This document shows positions 3,216 to 23,055 of a stretch of 64,000 nucleotides of DNA, piece after piece; position 1 is the first letter of the stretch, and the number at the start of each line of letters is the position of its first letter. This DNA comes from Gemmatimonadaceae bacterium. Its GTDB lineage: Bacteria; Gemmatimonadota; Gemmatimonadetes; Gemmatimonadales; Gemmatimonadaceae. The translations under genes and the position numbers were made by a program. The notes beneath the pieces are model-generated. The model saw only the letters and a list, made by a program, of their open reading frames with translations, was not told the DNA's origin and did no database searches. The DNA is taken from positions 1 to 64,000 of the forward strand of contig DATLTC010000030.1 in NCBI GenBank assembly GCA_035533755.1, written 5' to 3'.

Positions 3216-3950
3216 ATGATTCAACCGGACACTCGGCGTGGGATGACGCGCGGCGACGCGCAACTGGCCATCCGGCTCATGGCCGGCGAGGCAGGGGGCG
3301 AGGAGGAGCGTGCGCTGCAGCAGCGTCTCGCCAACGAGGGGCTGGACGCGGTGCTCGACGATCCACGGCTTCCGGGGGCGCTGCTGCAGCAGCCGCTGGG
3401 CGCGATCGCGTCACTGCGGTTGTTCACCTACGTGCTGGTGCGGGCCGCCCTGTTGCGTCTGGGAGAGGCCGATCACGTGATCAGCGACTACATGGCGGCG
3501 CTCGTCCTGGAGTTCGGCGCACGGGGGCGCGCGGAACGGTGCAGCGAGGACGACGACGAGATATACGACACGCTGGCCGCGTTGCTGCGCGACGCCGAGG
3601 GGCGCGACCAGCGCCGCAACTACCACGTGCGCGCGCATCTCGGCAACTACGCGCTCTGGTTGAGCGGGTTGTTTCCCGACCACATCGAGTACCGGCGGTG
3701 GCGCCGCGGCGGCCCCCACGTGTCGTACTACGAGGAACTCGGACGTCGGGGATTCGCGATGGCTGCCGAGCATCCCACGGCGCGCGAGCAGGGAATGGCC
3801 GACCTGTTCGCCGCGGTGGCCGAGCGGTTCGTGACGCTGCGCGTGGCGCTCACCGGGTTCAGCGATACGCTTCTGTTTCCCAACGTGCACACGCCCGAGC
3901 GACTCATGCGCCAGGTGCGCGACGAGGCCCGCTGGCGGTGGACGAGCTGA
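3216..3950 (+). CDS. Conserved hypothetical protein
   Basis: A 244-residue soluble protein that I do not recognise. It is rich in Arg, Leu and Glu and appears mostly helical, with the acidic stretch SEDDDEIYD near residue 110 and aromatic-rich segments YHVRAHLGNYALWLSGLFPDH and HVSYYEEL that may be conserved. There is no signal peptide or membrane segment. GGAGG at 3204-3208 supports the ATG start. Its 3' end overlaps the convergent class I amidotransferase gene by 47 bases. Divergent from the glycosyltransferase, it probably has its own promoter in 3109-3215. Confidence 0.6.
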   Translation: MIQPDTRRGMTRGDAQLAIRLMAGEAGGEEERALQQRLANEGLDAVLDDPRLPGALLQQPLGAIASLRLFTYVLVRAALLRLGEADHVISDYMAALVLEFGARGRAERCSEDDDEIYDTLAALLRDAEGRDQRRNYHVRAHLGNYALWLSGLFPDHIEYRRWRRGGPHVSYYEELGRRGFAMAAEHPTAREQGMADLFAAVAERFVTLRVALTGFSDTLLFPNVHTPERLMRQVRDEARWRWTS

Positions 3951-4662
3951 CGGCGGCCGCGAAGCCGCCGAACAGGGTACGGTCCCAGGTTTCGGGCGAC
4001 TGATCCAACTCTTCCGGATGCCATTGCACGCCGACCATCCACCAATCGTCGCTGCCCCATTCCAACGCCTCGATGATACCGTCGCTGGAGCGGGCGCTGG
4101 CGCGTAGGCCGTGGCCCGGTCGATCTGCGGCCTGGTGGTGCAGGGAGTTCACGGTGATGCGCTCGCCGCCCAGCATGCGCTGCAAGGTGGTTCCGGATTC
4201 CAGCGCCACGGCGTGGACGCGGGCGGCGCGTTCGGGTCCGCAGGCGTGCGACAGCGCGCCGGGGACCTGGGACGGAATGTCCTGGATGAGCGTGCCGCCA
4301 AACGCGACGTTGAGGATCTGGGCGCCGCGGCAGATGGCGAGCGTGGGAAGACGGCGCGCATGCGCGGCGTGGATGAGGCCCAGTTCGGAGCGGTCGCGCG
4401 CGGGATTGGGCGATTCGGCCCGGGGGTGGGGCGCCTGTCCGTAGAGACTCGGGTCCACGTCTTCGCCGCCGGTCAGCACGAGCCCGTCCACCCGCTCGAT
4501 GAGCGCTTCGATCGCCGCGGCGCTCAACGGGGGAACGACGACGGGGATCACGCCGGCGCGCTGGAGCGCGTCGACGTACCGCTGGTTCAAGCGGACTTGC
4601 GGGCGGTCGCGGACGACCTCGCTGGTGGCGGAGACAGCGACGACGGGAAGCAGCGGGGCCAT
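3904..4662 (-). CDS. Class I glutamine amidotransferase-like hydrolase (peptidase C26)
   Basis: A 252-residue member of the gamma-glutamyl-gamma-aminobutyrate hydrolase (PuuD-like) family. It shows the nucleophile elbow LAICRGAQILNVAFGG with catalytic Cys, the family segment DGLVLTGGEDVDPSLYGQ, and the catalytic His motif VGVQWHPEELD followed by a Glu. Such enzymes hydrolyse gamma-glutamyl amides, for example in putrescine catabolism; the substrate here cannot be read from sequence. The start MAPLLPVVAVSATSEV at 4662 places the first beta strand at the N-terminus as usual. No other polyamine catabolic gene is adjacent, so it may serve another gamma-glutamyl compound. Confidence 0.85.
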   Translation of the reverse strand: MAPLLPVVAVSATSEVVRDRPQVRLNQRYVDALQRAGVIPVVVPPLSAAAIEALIERVDGLVLTGGEDVDPSLYGQAPHPRAESPNPARDRSELGLIHAAHARRLPTLAICRGAQILNVAFGGTLIQDIPSQVPGALSHACGPERAARVHAVALESGTTLQRMLGGERITVNSLHHQAADRPGHGLRASARSSDGIIEALEWGSDDWWMVGVQWHPEELDQSPETWDRTLFGGFAAAVSSSTASGPRRAPGA

Positions 4663-5365: not shown

Positions 5366-7084
5366 ATGCGCGGGCCTTCGTACTTCGCGGCCGGGGTGCT
5401 GTGCGTTGCATGGGTGGGGGCCGCGAACGCGCAGGCCGCGCCACACAGCGTGCCCTGCCGGGGCCAACGGGTAGATGCGATCCGGATCGTATCGGAAGCG
5501 CCGTCGGTCACTGGCGTGCGCCGCCTGGCGGTTGTCTCGGACATCGCGCGGGCCGCCCACGTGACCACGCAGGCCGACGTGATCAGTCGCTTCCTTCTGC
5601 TGCACGTGGGCGACCCCTGCTCGGAGCGCCGGCGGGCCGAGTCCGAGCGCGTGCTGCGCGCCCAGCCCTTCCTGGCCGACGCCACGATCACGGTCGTGCC
5701 GAGCGGAAACGGCGGTGTGGTGCTGGACGTGCGGACCATCGACGAAGTGGCGCTCCTATTCAGTGCGACGGCGAACTCCAAGGGGCAATTGCTCACCCGA
5801 ACCCGGCTCGGCGACGGGAACCTGGGAGGCCAGGGTGTATACGCGCAGGGCGACTGGTGGCACGAGGCCGGCCTCCGCGACGGATACGCGTTTCACGTCA
5901 CGGACTATCAGTTTCTTGGCCGTCCGTACCAGGCCACGGCGACCGTGGCGCGCGATCCGTTGGGCGGACGGTACCACCTAGGCATCCAGCGCCCGTTCCT
6001 GACGGACGTGCAGCGCGTCGCGTGGCGCGTGCAGCAGGGCGAGGCGGACGACTACGTGCGGTTCGTGGATAACGCGGGGACGGTCCATGCCGACCGGCTG
6101 GGCCGCACGTACGGCGACATCGGTGGCCTGGTGCGGATCGGCGCGCCCGGGCGGCTGGCCCTGGTCGGGCTGTCGGTGTCGCACGAGGCGGAGCGATTGG
6201 ATGCGGCCCCGATTCTCATCACGCCGTCCGGGGTGTTGCCCGATCCCACGGCCACGCTCGACGGTCGCTATGCGGCCCACTCGGCGTCGCGCCTCAATCT
6301 GCTCCTCGGCTACCGCAATCTGAAGTTCGTGCGGGACACGGGGTTCGACGCGCTGCACAATACGCAGGACATTCCAGTGGGCCTCCAGGTGGGCACGATG
6401 GTCGGCAAGAGCGCACCGTTTCTGGGATCGCGCGACCACGACATGTTGATAGGTGCCGACGTCTACGCCAGTGCCGCGTCGACGCACTCGGCGGTGCGGT
6501 TCGAGACGCTCGGCGAGGTACGGCGCGAGTTGGACAGCACGACCTGGGACGGGCTCCTGGGGAGCGGCCGGCTGGCTGACTACCAGAAGCTTGGCGCACG
6601 GCAATTGTTCCTCACGTCGCTGGAATGGAGCGGTGGCTGGCGCGTGCGCGTGCCCTTCCGGATGACACTGGCCGGCACCGACGGCGGCGTGCGGGGCATG
6701 GCCCAGGGCACTGAGCAGGGAGGGCGCCGCGCCGTCTTGCGCATGGAAGACCGCTTCGATCTGGGATCGCCGTCGGGGTCCACGGCCGCGTTCGGGCTGG
6801 CGGTGTTCGCCGACGCGGGGCGGCTGTGGGCGGGGGACGTGCCGTTCGGCGTGACGACGCCGGTGCGGTCGTCGGTCGGGATCAGTCTGTTGGCCGCGGT
6901 ACCGGCGCGATCGGCCCGAATGTGGCGGTTGGACCTGGCGTTTCCGAACGTGCCGGGGCACGGGGTGCGGATGGCGCTCCGGCTGTCTTACGAAGATGGG
7001 ACGATCATATTCTGGCGGGAGCCGCGCGACGTAGCGATGGCACGGGAGCGAAGCGTGCCGGCGAGTCTGTTCAATTGGCCATGA
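5366..7084 (+). CDS. POTRA/beta-barrel outer membrane protein (BamA/TamA-like)
   Basis: A 572-residue exported protein with a Sec signal peptide (GVLCVAWVGAANAQA, cleavage near residue 24). Next comes one recognisable POTRA-like module around residues 35-135 with the pattern VISRFLLLHVGDPCSERRRAESERVLRAQPFLADATI, typical of the second half of a POTRA fold. The rest alternates polar and hydrophobic residues like a barrel. The end does not show the classical Phe-terminated signal (last residues SLFNWP), although an aromatic is near. With only one POTRA it is shorter than BamA, closer to patatin-linked or TamA-like barrels. It probably inserts or exports envelope proteins or lipids, but substrate is unknown. 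It starts directly after the coiled-coil gene. Confidence 0.7.
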   Translation: MRGPSYFAAGVLCVAWVGAANAQAAPHSVPCRGQRVDAIRIVSEAPSVTGVRRLAVVSDIARAAHVTTQADVISRFLLLHVGDPCSERRRAESERVLRAQPFLADATITVVPSGNGGVVLDVRTIDEVALLFSATANSKGQLLTRTRLGDGNLGGQGVYAQGDWWHEAGLRDGYAFHVTDYQFLGRPYQATATVARDPLGGRYHLGIQRPFLTDVQRVAWRVQQGEADDYVRFVDNAGTVHADRLGRTYGDIGGLVRIGAPGRLALVGLSVSHEAERLDAAPILITPSGVLPDPTATLDGRYAAHSASRLNLLLGYRNLKFVRDTGFDALHNTQDIPVGLQVGTMVGKSAPFLGSRDHDMLIGADVYASAASTHSAVRFETLGEVRRELDSTTWDGLLGSGRLADYQKLGARQLFLTSLEWSGGWRVRVPFRMTLAGTDGGVRGMAQGTEQGGRRAVLRMEDRFDLGSPSGSTAAFGLAVFADAGRLWAGDVPFGVTTPVRSSVGISLLAAVPARSARMWRLDLAFPNVPGHGVRMALRLSYEDGTIIFWREPRDVAMARERSVPASLFNWP

Positions 7085-7122
7085 TCGAGAGACAGCGCAG
7101 AGCAGGAAGCGCCGGGAAAGCG

Positions 7123-7139
7123 GTAGGACAGTAGGACGG
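7123..7139. repeat. GTAGGAC short repeat, copy 2
   Basis: GTAGGACAGTAGGACGG, a direct duplication of GTAGGAC, lies in the 68-base gap between the convergent outer-membrane barrel gene and the oppF-type gene. It differs at one position from the copy at 1399-1415 read on the other strand. Confidence 0.6.
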
Positions 7140-7152
7140 CCCGACGGAGGAC

Positions 7153-8255
7153 TTACGGTGCGGCGGTTCGGGGCGGCGTGGTGTGGAGCGCCGCGAGGGG
7201 AAGAAACCGTTCCGGCGGGCGAGTGCCACCCGCCTCCTGCTGCTGCTCCCACGACACGGCCGTGGGCGTCTGCTTGATACACGCCACGAAGTGGCCGGGC
7301 GCTTTCTCCTCGAGGGGCGGCACGAGGCGAGCGCAGGCGGCGTCCTTTGCCGGGTGCTGGCAGCGCGGGTGGAACACGCAGCCGGTCGGCGGGTGCGCGG
7401 GCGACGGGACGTCGCCCTGGAGAATGATCCGCTCGCGCGACGCCGCGGGGTCCGGCACGGGCACCGCCGACAGGAGCGCCTGGGTATACGGCATGAGCGG
7501 CTCCCGGTACAGATCCTGCGCCGCCGCGGACTCCACGATGTGCCCCAGGTACATCACGGCCACGCGGTCGGCGATGTGTTCCACGACCGCCAGATCGTGC
7601 GCGATGAACAGGTAGGCGAGCCCCCGGTCGCGCTGCAGATCGCTGAGCAGGTTGATCACCTGCGCCTGCACCGACACGTCGAGCGCCGACACCGGTTCGT
7701 CGCACACGATGAACGACGGCTCCACCGAGAGCGCGCGCGCGATGCCGACGCGCTGTCGCTGGCCACCGGAGAACTCATGGGGATAGCGGGTCGCGTACTC
7801 CGCACGGAGCCCCACCTCCTCGAGCAGCTGCCGCACCCGGCGGTCGGCCTCGGCGCCTTCGGCCACGCGGTGGATCGTGAGGCCCTCACGCACGATGGCG
7901 CCCACGGTCATGCGCGGATTGAGCGACGAGAACGGATCCTGAAACACGATCTGCATGCGCCGCCGCAGCCGGCGTAAATCGCCACCGCGCAGCGCGAGTA
8001 CGTCCCGGCCATCGAAGCGCACGCTGCCGCTGGTGGGCTCGATGAGGCGGAGAATGGTACGACCCGTGGTGGTCTTGCCGCACCCCGACTCGCCCACCAG
8101 GCCCAGCGTCTCACCGGGCATGACGTGGAACGAAACGCCGTCCACGGCGCGAACAGGATCGGGGGCCCGGCCGAACGTGCGGCCGCGACGCGGGAAGTAC
8201 TTCGTGAGGTCGCGGACCTCGAGCAACGCCGCGGCGGCGGATTCCGCGGGCGCCG

Positions 8256-17293: not shown

Positions 17294-17920
17294 TCAAGGA
17301 ACGCCGGCAGCCTCGTGCGCGTCGGCCGCGCCCTGCAGCGACTCCCACACCGCGTTCACCTGTTGCAGTAGTTGTTCACGGCTGCCGGCGTTGTGGATCA
17401 CGAGGTCGGCGCGGGCCCGCTTGAGCTCCGACGGCATCTGCGCGGCGATCATCGCCATGCCTTCGGTGGCGCTCAGGCCCCGCTCGGTCACCACGCGTTC
17501 CAACCGCAGAGAGCGTGGGGCATCGACCAGCAACACCATATTGAACTCGTCGACCATCTTCTTTTCGAACAGCAGCGGAATGTCGCACACCACAATCCGA
17601 TCGCCCCGGTCGCGTGCCTCGGCGACGGCGGCCGCGCGTAGACGCTCCACTTCGGGGTGCACGATCCGATTGAGAGCGACGAGCGCATCGGGATCATTGA
17701 ACACGATGTGGCGCAACGCGCCCCGGTCGAGCGCGCCATCGGGGAGCAGGATCTGCGGGCCCCACCGCGTGACGATCGCCTTGAGGGCGGGGCTGCCCGG
17801 CTCCACGGCGCGCCGGGCTAGGTCGTCGGCGTCGATGATCGTCGCGCCGCGCTCTGCCAGCAGTCTGGCCACGGTTGACTTGCCGCTGGCGATGTTGCCC
17901 GTGAGTCCTACGAGTAGCAT
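17294..17920 (-). CDS. coaE: Dephospho-CoA kinase
   Basis: A 208-residue P-loop kinase catalysing the last step of coenzyme A synthesis, phosphorylation of the 3'-OH of dephospho-CoA. It has the N-terminal VGLTGNIASGKSTVARLL with Walker A residues 8-15, DADDLARRAVEPG for substrate binding, and VCDIPLLFEKKMVDEFNMVLLVDAP in the CoA domain, all standard. The length is normal for the family. It precedes gcvH on the minus strand. Confidence 0.95.
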   Translation of the reverse strand: MLLVGLTGNIASGKSTVARLLAERGATIIDADDLARRAVEPGSPALKAIVTRWGPQILLPDGALDRGALRHIVFNDPDALVALNRIVHPEVERLRAAAVAEARDRGDRIVVCDIPLLFEKKMVDEFNMVLLVDAPRSLRLERVVTERGLSATEGMAMIAAQMPSELKRARADLVIHNAGSREQLLQQVNAVWESLQGAADAHEAAGVP

Positions 17921-18185
17921 GAGTCGGTGATTTTCGGATGGAGAAATAGCGCTGTCGCCAAGGTAGGGACGGCGGGGAAAAGCGTCAATAAATAGTATGG
18001 TTCGGAGGGTGATGGGAGATTGACGCCCGGTCCAATGCGCTACGGATCAAGGACTTACGTAACCGCCGGACGGGCGGCGGGAACGGAGCGCTCCCCGTGG
18101 TCGGATTGAGGCCCTCATCCTACGGCACTTAGAATGCGGTGCCAAGATCGGCCCCGATGTCTTGCCAACCCAACGGGTTGATACG

Positions 18186-19028
18186 CTAGTGTGCCTCCAT
18201 GGGTGTCCGTGGATCAGGCCTTTTGGGGGCCATGGTGCTGACGAACCGTTCGAGCAGGTGTTCGAAACCGGCTTCTCGCAGAATCCTAACCGGGCGGCTT
18301 CCGACGTGCCGTTCGACACCGTTGGCAAGCGCCTCTGGTGAAGAAAACTCTGCCTGCGCCGCCACGTCTTTCAGGGTCCGGCTCTCGACCTCAAGGCTCC
18401 AGACGGTGTGGAGGGCGAGCGCCCAACCGAGGAGTTGCTTTGGTGGAGGCAGCTGCCGCCGGGTCAGGAACAACTGGAGATTGCGCGTGGAGGAGCCGCA
18501 CGCGGCTGCCAAAGTGGGCACCGAAGCGTGCTTGCAGCCGAGGAGCACCGCGGCAGTCACAATGAGTTGCTCACGCGACTTTCGGGGTAGCGGAAGTGTT
18601 CGAATGATGCGAAGTGTTGCGGGGCGTTGAGAACGCAGACCGACCAGTGCTCGGAGGGATGCTCCGATCTCATCGAATCCACTCAAGCCGATTGTCACGT
18701 GAGTGGTAGTGCGCGCGATATCCCCGATCGCCGCCGCCGCAATCCGGTCCAGTTTGGTGGGTAGCAGGATCGGCAGCCGCAACGGACATTTGGCCAATTC
18801 GGCCACCCCCAGAGTGACGTCGCTGGCCGATTCGCCATCTAATTCCAATATGGTTGCCGCCGGCGGCCGAAGTATCGCCGCCGATACAAGGTCCCGTGTT
18901 TCGGAAAAGAAAGTTACGCCATGGGATGGAGGGACCGCGTCGAGGATTGCGGTTCTGTCCGCCGCTCCGTTTACGCACGCGAGCACATGCCGCGCCAGCG
19001 CCGATGGGTTCGAGGACATGCCGTGCAC
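18186..19028 (-). CDS. AraC-like transcriptional regulator of the accessory block
   Basis: A 280-residue protein with no export signal. The C-terminal part from about residue 165 has two helix-turn-helix-like segments: SVPTLAAACGSSTRNLQLFLTR and, after a linking helix, LKDVAAQAEFSSPEALANGVERHVGSRP. This spacing is that of AraC/XylS DNA-binding domains. The N-terminal 150 residues are unfamiliar and resemble a receiver-like or sensor fold with alternating strands (AAILRPPAATILELDG, RLPILLPTKL). No phosphoacceptor Asp is obvious. It is divergent from the large secreted protein gene, so it is the likely local regulator. The start may be M1 or M4. Confidence 0.6.
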   Translation of the reverse strand: MHGMSSNPSALARHVLACVNGAADRTAILDAVPPSHGVTFFSETRDLVSAAILRPPAATILELDGESASDVTLGVAELAKCPLRLPILLPTKLDRIAAAAIGDIARTTTHVTIGLSGFDEIGASLRALVGLRSQRPATLRIIRTLPLPRKSREQLIVTAAVLLGCKHASVPTLAAACGSSTRNLQLFLTRRQLPPPKQLLGWALALHTVWSLEVESRTLKDVAAQAEFSSPEALANGVERHVGSRPVRILREAGFEHLLERFVSTMAPKRPDPRTPMEAH

Positions 19029-19130
19029 CGGTGGGTAGGCCTGAGAGGCATACGACAGCGGCGTCGCCGGTCAACTTGCGATTGTTGTCGCCCATCATAA
19101 TACCTATAGCGCATCGTCTGCGTCGTCGTT

Positions 19131-19148
19131 AATACGACCATATGTATT
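19131..19148. promoter_or_regulatory. Candidate operator in the accessory-block divergent promoter
   Basis: AATAC (19131-19135) and GTATT (19144-19148) form an inverted repeat with an 8-base spacer, in the AT-rich 153-base gap between the AraC-like regulator and the secreted protein gene. It is a plausible regulator site; the assignment is by position only. Confidence 0.3.
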
Positions 19149-19181
19149 GTGATGTAACCGGCCCGTGAGGCGAGGATAGAG

Positions 19182-21116
19182 ATGCCTCGGATCAGAACAT
19201 TCCCCGTTCCGGCATTGACTGCCAGCCGCCTTCAAATCCGGCGTGCAATGCGACTTTGGGCCCTCGTCCCGTCCTGGGTAATAAGGATCTTCCGCCCGCC
19301 GTCCGGAGGTCGGACCGCGACGGAAGCCAGGGGTCGCACTCTGCGTAGGATGGGGGGCGCGCTGGCCCTCGAAGCCGCGGTCGTCGCTATCGTGCTGCTT
19401 GGCGGAGGCCACCGCCTTCAGGCTCAGGAGGTGGGGGGCGTCGTGGTGGACAGCGTCTCGAGGACCCCGATAGTAGGAGCCGTGGTGACAGGGTTGGACA
19501 ACTCCGATGGCGTCGTGATGCGCACCTTGACCGACCTCCGGGGTGTATTTCATATGGCAGACGAGCGCTCGAGAATTGTGAAATTGCGTGTTGCGCGATT
19601 GGGGTATCTTCCGCGGGATGTGACACTCGAGGAACTGACCTCCCATGCGGTCGTGCTGAGCGCATTTCCCGTCGGGCTGAGCGCCGTCCATTCGATTGCT
19701 CGTGTCGAATGTCCGCGCGGCGATGATCAGGGGCGGGCTGCGCAGCTATGGGATCAAGCGCGTGGAGCGCTCGCGGCAATAGTCGCCGGCCGGTCGTCCG
19801 ACGCGGCCCTGATGCGAATTGTCCGATACCGCCGACAGGTCGAAGGCGAGGGCGCCGGTGCACGGATCGTTGCCCAGTCCCTCGAGACCGTGGACGGCGA
19901 AGGCACGCGGGCGTTCGGGAGCGGTCGATCGCCGGAGTTCTTGGCCCGCAATGGGTATCTGGCAGGCAGCGGAAGCTCCGTCGAGCTATACATACCCGAC
20001 GAGGAGGCGTTGCTCGATAGTTCGTTCATCGAAACGCACTGCTTTCACATCGCCGATGGTGGACGAACGCATCCCGCCGACGTCGGCGTCTCCTTTGCCC
20101 CGGTGCCGTCAAGAGCGGGACTGACGGAGCTTGAGGGAGTGCTGTGGATCGATACCACGTTGCAGGCGCTTGATACGCTCCGGTTTTCGTTTGCCGGTCC
20201 TGGGGTTGCTGGAGTGGATGTTGCGGCCGCTCGGGGCGAATTCGTCTTTTCGACGACAGCGAACGGAGTGCCGTTTCGGTCATCGTGGTGGTTGAAGGAG
20301 CCTCCACAGCAAGACGTCGTCTTGTTCCGGCACACGACGCCTGAAGGGTACGGGAAGGGACTGGGACAGGTTATCCGACTCGCGGTGGAAGAGGGTGCAC
20401 AAGTCGCATGGGCACAGTGGCCCGATGGCAGCAGATATGCGAGCGTGATGCCCGCTATTGCCGGACGTGTCATCGATCCGAACACCGGGCGCGGACGGTA
20501 CGGGGTACCTATCGTGCTCTTGAATGCGTCGCGTCGCACGATCACCGACAGCTCTGGAAGGTTTGAATTCGGCGAGCTAATGCCGGGGCCCTATCTACTG
20601 GCGATTCCCGACACCATGTTCGCGATGTTCCACGACATGCTCGGTGCTCCAGACGCGCGCGCAAGCGGGTTTGTTCCTGCACCAGAGTTGGGGGACCGTG
20701 CGTTGGGCGTACGCTACCGGCCGGGACAGGCTCCGACAGTTTGGCTTGCGCTGGGGTCGGAAGGAAGCCCGAACATTAGGATCGAGATGGCTCCCCTCGA
20801 ACGGGCGTTTCAAACATACTGCGACGACGCGACGCGGGGCGACGACTCGGGAAGGCTCGCGGTGTGGCTCGTCACGGATGATGGAGCCGCCGCAGGCGCG
20901 CTGGTTGAGTGGCGGTTCCCGGATCGCCCCGGTGGCCAAACCGCGCGCGCGGACAAGGATGGCCGAGTCATCTTCTGCCGCGTGCCCCGCGGGCAGCCCG
21001 TCACAGTGCTTGGGGCCCGAAGTGACCGGTCGGCATCGCAGCGCGTGGTCGCCGTTGCCGGCGCCCCCGCGACACTCGTCGTCCTCCGACTCTCGCAGAC
21101 GGGTGGGCAGAAGTAA
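19182..21116 (+). CDS. Large secreted protein with carboxypeptidase-regulatory-like domains
   Basis: A 644-residue protein of unknown function. After a basic 57-residue lead comes a hydrophobic export segment (ALALEAAVVAIVLLGGG) ending in QAQ, then a carboxypeptidase-regulatory-like beta sandwich: VGGVVVDSVSRTPIVGAVVTG, then TDLRGVFHM and VARLGYLPRDV. A second copy of this fold is visible near residues 425-475 (IAGRVIDPNTGRGRYGVPIVLL, then TDSSGRFEFGELMPGPYLL), and a third, weaker one near the C-terminus (ADKDGRVIFCRVPRG). The middle (residues about 180-420) may be a beta-rich domain with WLKEPP. GAGGATAGAG before the ATG supports this start. It heads a probable unit with the cysteine-rich peptide and the DsbA-like gene. 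Confidence 0.65.
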   Translation: MPRIRTFPVPALTASRLQIRRAMRLWALVPSWVIRIFRPPSGGRTATEARGRTLRRMGGALALEAAVVAIVLLGGGHRLQAQEVGGVVVDSVSRTPIVGAVVTGLDNSDGVVMRTLTDLRGVFHMADERSRIVKLRVARLGYLPRDVTLEELTSHAVVLSAFPVGLSAVHSIARVECPRGDDQGRAAQLWDQARGALAAIVAGRSSDAALMRIVRYRRQVEGEGAGARIVAQSLETVDGEGTRAFGSGRSPEFLARNGYLAGSGSSVELYIPDEEALLDSSFIETHCFHIADGGRTHPADVGVSFAPVPSRAGLTELEGVLWIDTTLQALDTLRFSFAGPGVAGVDVAAARGEFVFSTTANGVPFRSSWWLKEPPQQDVVLFRHTTPEGYGKGLGQVIRLAVEEGAQVAWAQWPDGSRYASVMPAIAGRVIDPNTGRGRYGVPIVLLNASRRTITDSSGRFEFGELMPGPYLLAIPDTMFAMFHDMLGAPDARASGFVPAPELGDRALGVRYRPGQAPTVWLALGSEGSPNIRIEMAPLERAFQTYCDDATRGDDSGRLAVWLVTDDGAAAGALVEWRFPDRPGGQTARADKDGRVIFCRVPRGQPVTVLGARSDRSASQRVVAVAGAPATLVVLRLSQTGGQK

Positions 21117-21330
21117 GGCATACGGCAGTGGACTTGCGCATAACGTCAGGTAGGTACGCGAAATGTACGGAAAATGCGCGGATGCCCTCTGGTCCGCAGG
21201 TGATGCCGTGTGCATCTTCGCGCACGTGCGGCTACGCAATAGCCGTACGAAGGTCCTCGGAAGACAGGCTCACCGCCGACGTAGCTACTTGGTGAGCAAG
21301 GAGCAGACTCGAAATGGAGGGCGCGTTTCG

Positions 21331-21606
21331 ATGAAAGCGCATCGGCTCATCATGAAGAGCGGGTTGGTCGCAGCACTCGCGCTGGCTGCGCTCGCCATAC
21401 ATCCTCGGGCTGGCGTTGTCGTGACCCAAGGCGCGAACACGAGCTGCATTGAAGGGTGCTGCGTCTGCGGTTACCCAGGAGAGACGTGTTGGGGGGTGGA
21501 CGCCTGGGACACGTGCATGGAAGCTTGCGGGGTGCCTCCCAGCTCCTGCGTTGAGAACGACGTGTGGGACTGCGGGCAAGACGTGATCATGGTCGGTTGT
21601 TCCTAG
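21331..21606 (+). CDS. Secreted cysteine-rich miniprotein (10 Cys), unknown family
   Basis: A 91-residue precursor. The N-terminus MKAHRLIMKSGLVAALALAA continues as a hydrophobic core to about residue 24, a Sec-type signal peptide. The last 55 residues hold ten cysteines (Cys39, 43, 44, 46, 53, 62, 66, 73, 81, 90), including a GCCVCG cluster, and no lysine or arginine, so the mature part is acidic. That many cysteines in a small exported domain suggests up to five disulfides or metal ligation. GGAGG at 21316-21320 supports the ATG; the frame extends upstream but lacks a better start. The next gene encodes a DsbA-like oxidoreductase 74 bases on, which would fit oxidative folding of this peptide. 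I do not recognise a family. Confidence 0.65.
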   Translation: MKAHRLIMKSGLVAALALAALAIHPRAGVVVTQGANTSCIEGCCVCGYPGETCWGVDAWDTCMEACGVPPSSCVENDVWDCGQDVIMVGCS

Positions 21607-21680
21607 GCCCGTGCGCCGGTGTGACATCGTAAGGGCCGAACCCGTCCAACGGATCTTCGGATGCCTGGGTGCGAGGACCG

Positions 21681-22406
21681 ATGAAGCCAGAGACTCTTGA
21701 GCGTGCGATGTCTGCGACCCTGACCGTCGCAGCGGTCGTCATCGCAGCGGCGCTCGTACATGACGAACTCGCTTCCAAACGTGCGCTCGCCGCTCGAGGC
21801 GCTACTTCTCCGCCAGAGGTCGTCGCGCACTGGTCGGATGTCGTGAGAGCCGGGGTACTGATTGGCGACTCGGCAGCCCCGGTCAAAGTCGTGGAATTCG
21901 GAGATTTTGAATGCCCGTTCTGCCGCCGGTTCGAGATGACCTATCGATCCGTCAAGGCACGGTTTGGACGCTCTGTAGCACTTGTCTTCGTTAGCTATCC
22001 CCTCACGAATGTTCATCGATTCGCTGCGCCCGCGGACCGAGCCGCAAGTTGCGCGCTCGCTCAGGGGCGCTTTGCCGAGTTTCACGATGCACTGTACGAT
22101 GAGCAAGACTCGCTTGGGCTTAAGTCCTGGGGTTCGTATGCCGATCAGGCCGGTGTGCCGGATACGGCGCGGTTCATGCGATGCCTCAAGAATGCACCGG
22201 ACGTCAGTGCGCTTGTTAGCGCAGGACGCGCTGTAGCCAGTCAACTCGGCGTAAACGCAACCCCAACTGTCTTGATCAACGGTTGGCGATTCTATAGGCC
22301 TCCGAGCGATTCCGAACTCACGCTTGCGACTAAGGAGATTCTAGCCGGCAAGTCACCGGATGAGGTCTTCACCAATCCTCCGTTCGCCGGTGCACGCAAA
22401 CCTTGA
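21681..22406 (+). CDS. Membrane-anchored DsbA-like thiol:disulfide oxidoreductase
   Basis: A 241-residue protein with one N-terminal membrane segment or uncleaved signal (residues about 10-28) and a periplasmic thioredoxin-fold domain of the DsbA/thioredoxin_4 class. The active site is CPFC (C78, C81) in VVEFGDFECPFCRRFE, and the cis-proline loop is VNATPTVLINGWRF. Two more cysteines (ASCALAQG and RCLKN) lie in the helical insertion, as in related proteins with a second structural disulfide. Such enzymes form disulfides in exported proteins. Placed right after the ten-cysteine peptide gene, it is probably dedicated to it or to the preceding secreted protein. GAGG precedes the ATG at 21681. 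Confidence 0.8.
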   Translation: MKPETLERAMSATLTVAAVVIAAALVHDELASKRALAARGATSPPEVVAHWSDVVRAGVLIGDSAAPVKVVEFGDFECPFCRRFEMTYRSVKARFGRSVALVFVSYPLTNVHRFAAPADRAASCALAQGRFAEFHDALYDEQDSLGLKSWGSYADQAGVPDTARFMRCLKNAPDVSALVSAGRAVASQLGVNATPTVLINGWRFYRPPSDSELTLATKEILAGKSPDEVFTNPPFAGARKP

Positions 22407-22434
22407 ACTCCGTTGGTCAATCGAAGCCATGACC

Positions 22435-23055
22435 CTACAAGGCAAGGTCTCCCTGGCCTGCGTGGGGTCCGGGTAGCTCGTGGCAGGCGCGACAACGTGC
22501 CTCATAAGTCTCAGCGCCCCCAACCATAATCGTCGGTGACGAATAAAGCGCCGGCTTTCCCCCCACCAGCCGCTGGTTCCGGCTGGCCGGGTTGCCGCAT
22601 CGCACGCAAATGGCGTGCAGCTTGTCCACGATCTCGGCAATCGCCATCAACTGCGGCATGGCGCCGAAGGGCTCGCCGCGGAAATCCGTGTCGGTGCCGG
22701 CGAGGATCACCCGCAGGCCGCGGTCGGCGAGGTCGGTGGCCAGGGACACGATGCGCTCGTCGAGGAACTGCGCTTCGTCGATCGCCACCACCTGGGTGTC
22801 GGCGCGCACGCGCTCGGCGATCTGCGCGACCGTGTCCACCGGCACGGCCTCGGTGGTACGCCCATCGTGACTCGACACCTTGAAAACGCCGGCGTACCGC
22901 TCATCGAGGTGCGACTTGAACACCTGAACGCGGCGTTTGGCGATCGTGGCGCGACGCACGCGGCGGAGCAGTTCCTCACTCTTGCCGCTGAACATCACGC
23001 CGGCAATGACCTCGATCCACCCACTGCGCGCTGTGAAATACGTATCCGACGTCAC
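22435..23055 (-). CDS. tdk: Thymidine kinase
   Basis: A 206-residue type II thymidine kinase that phosphorylates thymidine to dTMP in salvage. It has the P-loop GVMFSGKS (residues 19-26), the DEAQF motif with catalytic Glu94, and a structural zinc site made from CVRCG and CRACH. The ATG overlaps the stop of the DEAD-box-like gene by 4 bases (ATGA). Thymidine phosphorylase is also present at 45.2 kb, so thymidine has both salvage and breakdown routes here. Confidence 0.95.

What the first reader, a model, noticed from the sequence alone, without database searches (positions are those of the whole stretch)
18186..22406. Accessory block encoding a ten-cysteine secreted peptide beside a DsbA-like oxidoreductase
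Seen: an AraC-like regulator is divergent from a large secreted protein, followed by a 91-residue exported precursor with ten cysteines in its last 55 residues and by a membrane-anchored CPFC thioredoxin-fold protein. By eye the block is less GC-rich than its flanks and sits between housekeeping coaE and tdk. Known: DsbA proteins oxidise cysteines of exported proteins. Inference: the oxidoreductase folds the peptide, and the large regulatory-domain protein displays or recognises it; together this would be an undescribed secreted-peptide system.
Basis: partly seen in the sequence, partly recalled or inferred. Interest (0 to 1): 0.75.

Follow-up and report, generated by a model that had tools for sequence, protein, structure and literature searches.

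The report
Secreted disulfide-rich peptide with dedicated DsbA
In this bacterium of the family Gemmatimonadaceae a small exported peptide packed with cysteines sits next to its own disulfide-forming enzyme, and the same pairing recurs, with a highly variable peptide, across the phylum, which suggests an undescribed family of custom-folded secreted mini-proteins.

Summary
The block between coaE and tdk encodes an AraC-like regulator, a large CarboxypepD_reg protein, a 91-aa exported peptide with 10 Cys, and a membrane-anchored CPFC DsbA-like protein. GC3 is 0.59-0.74 in the block versus 0.82-0.92 in the flanks. It is an insertion: coaE and tdk are direct neighbours in all three congeneric genomes. 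The peptide has no Pfam, NCBIfam or PDB family and no BLAST relative, but the DsbA leads to its family: 39 of 53 close DsbA homologues in the taxonomic family, and 14 of 25 in other families of the class, have a short signal-peptide, Cys-rich ORF next door. The rate is 2/168 beside random genes and 1/79 beside DsbA-like genes of other phyla. In reverse, a peptide profile found 40 peptides in 28 of 179 genomes; all 30 loci fetched carry the DsbA. In 65 of 69 peptides the Cys count is even; non-Cys residues are no more alike than shuffled ones. Most loci also carry a CarboxypepD_reg protein, a beta-propeller or an outer-membrane barrel. Most likely a dedicated oxidase folds a hypervariable secreted miniprotein. 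Its role (antagonism, signalling, surface) is unproven; that the large protein displays it is weakly supported.

The parts
18186..19028 (-). AraC-like regulator (C-terminal HTH_18, sub-threshold), divergent from the rest of the block
   Evidence: Pfam HTH_18 E 3.3e-5; homologous HTH_18 regulators beside peptide-DsbA pairs in L131, L146, L160
19182..21116 (+). large exported protein: CarboxypepD_reg (TTR-like) domains around a predicted beta-rich middle domain; start possibly near 19350
   Evidence: Pfam CarboxypepD_reg 1.1e-17, two stretches; AlphaFold model mean pLDDT 74; Foldseek hits only to SdrD-B/pilin-type beta-sandwich domains with low TM-scores
21331..21606 (+). precursor of a secreted Cys-rich peptide, 91 aa, 10 Cys: the 8-Cys core of the family plus two extra Cys
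   Evidence: family alignment A3; found by the family profile at 3.5e-10 (the window peptide is one row of that profile)
21669..22406 (+). membrane-anchored DsbA-like thiol oxidoreductase (CPFC, cis-Pro TP, two further invariant Cys); start probably ATG at 21681
   Evidence: Thioredoxin_4 1e-24; invariant D79 C82 C85 P111 H116 C128 C172 T198 P199 in A1
18000..22434 (.). accessory insert between the coaE promoter region and the tdk stop codon; approximate ends
   Evidence: coaE-tdk adjacent (about 100-180 nt) in all three congeneric genomes; codon-position GC; no terminal repeats seen
17294..17920 (-). flanking housekeeping gene coaE
   Evidence: 79-80% identical in congeners, next to tdk there
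22435..23055 (-). flanking housekeeping gene tdk
   Evidence: 85-88% identical in congeners

Best explanation
The block is an accessory cassette that makes a secreted, disulfide-rich miniprotein. The 91-aa precursor is exported by a Sec-type signal peptide (inferred). Its cysteines are oxidised in the periplasm by the neighbouring membrane-anchored DsbA-like enzyme (inferred from co-occurrence, gene order and even Cys counts), which could be re-oxidised by one of the genome's VKOR proteins. The mature miniprotein has a conserved Cys framework carrying hypervariable, Lys/Arg-poor loops. The AraC-like gene (in other loci sometimes an ECF sigma factor) would control the cassette, and a co-encoded envelope protein (here the CarboxypepD_reg protein, elsewhere a beta-propeller or an outer-membrane barrel) would bind, present or transport the product. 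The hypervariable loops on a fixed frame point to an interaction molecule (antagonism or signalling between bacteria) rather than an enzyme part; this last step is a guess.
For: DsbA-like homologues ranked by BLAST to the window protein: 39/61 with score >=95 bits have an adjacent Cys-rich signal-peptide ORF against 5/23 below (p 6e-4). By profile: 39/53 in the family and 14/25 in other families of the class, 2/168 beside random genes, 1/79 beside DsbA-like genes of other phyla. Reciprocal: 30 of 30 fetched peptide-profile loci carry the DsbA; five of them, in G075, G076, G077, G137 and G140, were not in the profile's training set. Even Cys number in 65/69 peptides, and median gap to the DsbA start 82 nt on the same strand. 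Non-Cys identity of mature parts 0.25 equals the shuffled control. K+R 3.7% against 11.5% in the DsbA proteins. Two VKOR genes in the genome. Insertion at coaE/tdk. Precedents: BdbB forms the sublancin disulfides (PMC6391423) and cluster-encoded TmcD forms that of TMcin (PMC13252029).
Against: No direct evidence of expression, oxidation or secretion. Some DsbA homologues of the subfamily lack a visible peptide (14 of 53 in the family; a few are rescued with relaxed criteria). The profile A1 was built from peptide-positive loci, so the 39/53 figure is somewhat inflated; the BLAST-ranked test and the class-level test are less affected. In the class sample, 7 of 48 random genes also had a nearby Cys-rich ORF. 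No exporter across the outer membrane and no immunity gene is visible. The AlphaFold model of the mature peptide is of low confidence.
Confidence: 0.75

Rival explanations
1. The peptide is a bacteriocin-like antagonist: a disulfide-stabilised toxin against related bacteria, with the large protein or propeller acting as release or immunity factor.
For: Hypervariable loops on a fixed Cys frame, patchy insertion, tandem or paired variant copies in single loci such as L145, L154 and L162, dedicated oxidase as in sublancin and TMcin (PMC6391423, PMC13252029).
Against: Mature parts are mostly acidic and poor in Lys/Arg, unlike common cationic antimicrobial peptides; no peptidase-ABC exporter, double-glycine leader or evident immunity gene in the block.
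Confidence: 0.3
2. The peptide is a signalling or recognition ligand read by the co-encoded propeller, CarboxypepD_reg protein or outer-membrane barrel, feeding back on the AraC-like or ECF regulator.
For: Co-encoded envelope partners and regulators in many loci; one barrel partner has sub-threshold TonB plug similarity.
Against: Partner type varies; the closest homologues of the window's large protein lack the peptide; a regulator homologue was detected in only a minority of loci.
Confidence: 0.3
3. The peptide is a structural or metal-binding component of the cell envelope and the oxidase is general envelope redox machinery.
For: Acidic, Gly- and Cys-rich composition.
Against: Non-Cys positions are unconserved, the even Cys count points to disulfides, and the DsbA subfamily is the one tied to the peptide while other DsbA-like genes of the same genomes are not.
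Confidence: 0.15
4. Chance: a GC-rich spurious ORF beside an ordinary DsbA.
For: No BLAST relative of the peptide.
Against: Recurrence in dozens of loci, even Cys counts, reciprocal profile search, good ribosome-binding sequence.
Confidence: 0.03

Closest known systems
Sublancin 168 and other glycocins with BdbA/BdbB (Bacillus)
   Same: secreted disulfide-bonded peptide encoded with its own thiol-disulfide oxidoreductase (PMC6391423)
   Different: sublancin has two disulfides, an S-linked glucose and the SunT processing exporter; here 6-10 Cys, a Sec-type signal, no glycosyltransferase or exporter in the block, and a phylum with two membranes
TMcin with the DsbA-family TmcD (Staphylococcus)
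   Same: cluster-encoded DsbA-family enzyme needed for the peptide's disulfide (PMC13252029)
   Different: TMcin has one disulfide and keeps a transmembrane helix in the product; here a soluble-looking Cys-rich domain follows the signal peptide
NVEALA peptides (PF14055) of Bacteroidota, often next to 6-bladed propellers (association recalled from memory)
   Same: small exported Cys-containing peptide; many Gemmatimonadota loci here have a propeller-like protein, some weakly matching PF17170
   Different: no PF14055 match in the peptides tested or in this genome
BdbD/DsbA-type thioredoxin-fold oxidases
   Same: CPFC, cis-Pro, Thioredoxin_4; profile matches PDB 4pwp (1.9e-27) and BdbD 3eu3 (2e-19)
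   Different: a Gemmatimonadota subfamily with two further invariant Cys, genetically tied to the peptide

Membership tests
DsbA-like thiol oxidoreductases (Thioredoxin_4) | thioredoxin fold with CxxC and cis-Pro | tested here: met
   Pfam 1e-24 above the cut-off; C82, C85, T198, P199 invariant
DsbA-like thiol oxidoreductases (Thioredoxin_4) | oxidase (not reductase) activity | not testable with these tools
   no biochemistry; VKOR genes present as possible partner
Sublancin/glycocin-type bacteriocins | dedicated thiol-disulfide oxidoreductase beside the precursor | tested here: met
Sublancin/glycocin-type bacteriocins | glycosyltransferase and peptidase-ABC exporter in the cluster | tested here: not met
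   the block holds four genes, none of these
Sublancin/glycocin-type bacteriocins | antimicrobial activity | not testable with these tools
   needs assay
TMcin | transmembrane helix kept in the mature product | tested here: inconclusive
   the only hydrophobic helix is the N-terminal signal-like one; cleavage not shown
NVEALA peptides (PF14055) | match to the Pfam model | tested here: not met
   no hit at E up to 1 for the window peptide or ten relatives, nor in the genome
CarboxypepD_reg proteins | CarboxypepD_reg domain above the gathering score | tested here: met
   64.6 bits against 32.3
AraC family regulators | HTH_18 above the gathering score | tested here: inconclusive
   24.5 bits against 33.6; the regulator in L160 passes with 36.7

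The most novel reading that the evidence does not exclude
Gemmatimonadota carry a phylum-wide, rapidly diversifying repertoire of disulfide-locked secreted miniproteins (a fixed Cys frame with free loops), each with its own DsbA-type oxidase and an interchangeable envelope partner: a bacterial counterpart of venom-peptide-like diversification used in interactions between cells.
Probability: 0.35. Interest if true: 0.8.

Novelty: new variant of a known kind. Interest (0 to 1): 0.62.

Why it matters
Few secreted peptides are known from Gemmatimonadota, a phylum that is hard to grow (own knowledge). A family found through its oxidase rather than its own sequence shows how hypervariable peptides escape annotation. 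The DsbA subfamily is a practical handle for mining more, and a candidate co-expression tool for making multi-disulfide peptides.

Tried and rejected
BLAST and tblastn with the peptide gave only chance hits; those followed up, in G170 and G104, are antisense frames of other genes. A Cys-spacing DNA pattern scan was swamped by TGC repeats and looked no better than its reversed control. The large protein as anchor: its top homologues carry no DsbA or peptide, so the DsbA was used instead. DsbA-like genes of other phyla carry no such peptide. No close relative of the oxidase on viral contigs or plasmids. No direct repeats mark the insert ends. The AlphaFold model of the peptide is too uncertain in the Cys-rich part to assign disulfides, so it was not searched. 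Foldseek of the large protein gave only generic beta-sandwich matches.

Full report
What is there. The block 18186-22406 lies between coaE (17294-17920) and tdk (22435-23055), both on the minus strand. It holds an AraC-like regulator (minus strand), then on the plus strand a large exported protein with CarboxypepD_reg domains, a 91-aa precursor with ten Cys, and a membrane-anchored DsbA-like protein with CPFC. Third-position GC is 0.67, 0.69, 0.74 and 0.59 for these genes against 0.82-0.92 for the flanking housekeeping genes. The genome is a 3.25 Mb draft. A relative from the same taxonomic family is a public Gemmatimonadaceae MAG (contig of 288,580 bases, G115:C21 = L211).

It is an insertion. 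In the three other genomes of the genus, tdk and coaE are direct neighbours with roughly 100-180 nt between them and gcvH behind coaE. The promoter-like stretch in front of coaE is recognisable in the window at about 17960-18000, so about 4.4 kb lies between it and the tdk stop. No terminal repeats and no transposase gene within the block mark the ends. One congener (G103) carries a related peptide-DsbA pair elsewhere, close to an IS3-type transposase (L132).

The peptide alone finds nothing. It has no Pfam or NCBIfam match, its family profile finds no significant PDB relative, and the weak tblastn hits in 179 family genomes that were followed up are antisense frames. The DsbA-like protein, in contrast, has 45-50% identical homologues in the family. 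Directly beside most of the best ones lies a short ORF with a signal peptide and 6-10 Cys.

Quantification. Ranked simply by BLAST to the window DsbA, 39 of 61 homologues scoring at least 95 bits have such a neighbour against 5 of 23 weaker ones (Fisher p 6e-4). With a profile of the subfamily, 39 of 53 in the family and 14 of 25 in other families of the class have it. Beside random genes of the same loci it is 2 of 168 in the family, and beside DsbA-like genes of other phyla 1 of 79. In the class sample 7 of 48 random genes had one, so that comparison is weaker. The profile was built from peptide-positive loci, which inflates the first figure; the BLAST-ranked test and the class sample are less affected. 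Turning the search around, a profile of 32 peptides found 40 places in 28 of 179 genomes, and all 30 loci fetched contain the DsbA. Five of these, in G075, G076, G077, G137 and G140, were not in the training set.

Anatomy of the peptide family. Most members have eight Cys with median spacings 3-3-7-4-6-6-8; the window peptide has the same frame plus two Cys. In 65 of 69 members the number of Cys after the signal is even, as expected if all are paired. Outside the Cys, mature parts are no more alike (0.25) than the same sequences with non-Cys residues shuffled (0.25), while the DsbA partners average 0.36 identity. Lys and Arg make up 3.7% against 11.5% in the DsbA proteins, and most mature parts are acidic. 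The median gap to the DsbA start is 82 nt on the same strand, so an operon is likely.

Partners. Among 64 peptide-positive DsbA ORFs, a propeller-like protein lies within 2.5 kb in 32, a CarboxypepD_reg protein in 13, an outer-membrane barrel in 6, an AraC-like regulator in 4 and an ECF sigma factor in 5. The family models were built from these loci, so the counts are partly circular. Two propellers match PF17170 (6-bladed beta-propeller) just below the cut-off. The window's large protein belongs to a big paralogous family, and its closest homologues have no DsbA or peptide nearby, so its role here is open. Its model shows TTR-like domains around a beta-rich middle, and Foldseek gives only generic surface-protein beta-sandwiches.

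How it most likely works. Shown: gene order, co-occurrence in both directions, even Cys counts, insertion. Inferred: Sec export, oxidation by the neighbouring DsbA, re-oxidation of that enzyme by VKOR (two VKOR genes in the genome), and regulation by the divergent AraC-like gene. Guess: the product acts between cells. The acidic, Lys/Arg-poor composition speaks against a classical cationic antimicrobial peptide, but hypervariable loops on a fixed frame and tandem or paired variant copies (L145, L154, L162) fit antagonism or recognition.

Comparison with the known. Dedicated oxidases beside secreted disulfide peptides are known from sublancin (BdbB, PMC6391423) and TMcin (TmcD, PMC13252029). 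This works like those, but is not a member of either: no exporter, no glycosyltransferase, many more Cys, a different phylum and envelope. Bacteroidota NVEALA peptides are a possible parallel (recalled from memory), but no match to PF14055 was found. Searches of an open-access library gave no description of such a system in Gemmatimonadota; subscription papers and sequence annotations elsewhere were not searched.

Noticed in passing
L145 (G117:C16), 3625-4277: Three tandem 59-60 aa peptides with a CC...CC...C...C frame, each a variant of the others, in front of one DsbA-like gene: a second peptide type served by the same oxidase subfamily.
   Followed up: partly
L386 (G137:C1), 830-1755: A peptide-DsbA pair (90-aa precursor) sits downstream of the ribosomal protein genes rpsL-rpsG, on the same strand; another case of an accessory cassette beside core genes.
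   Followed up: no
L132 (G103:C60), 3727-4638: An IS3-type transposase gene lies about 1.3 kb from the congener's peptide-DsbA cassette, a possible route of movement.
   Followed up: no
L142 (G052:C540), 866-2725: A 619-residue open frame that includes the DsbA-like domain follows a 9-Cys peptide; possibly a fusion of the oxidase with a partner domain.
   Followed up: no
G000:C51 (L054), 5964-8156: A paralogue of the large CarboxypepD_reg protein in the same genome, without a DsbA-like gene or Cys-rich peptide nearby.
   Followed up: partly
L323 (G423:C105), upstream of 2185: In another family of the class, two related short peptides with a CC...CC frame sit before a DsbA-like ORF, similar in style to L145.
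   Followed up: no
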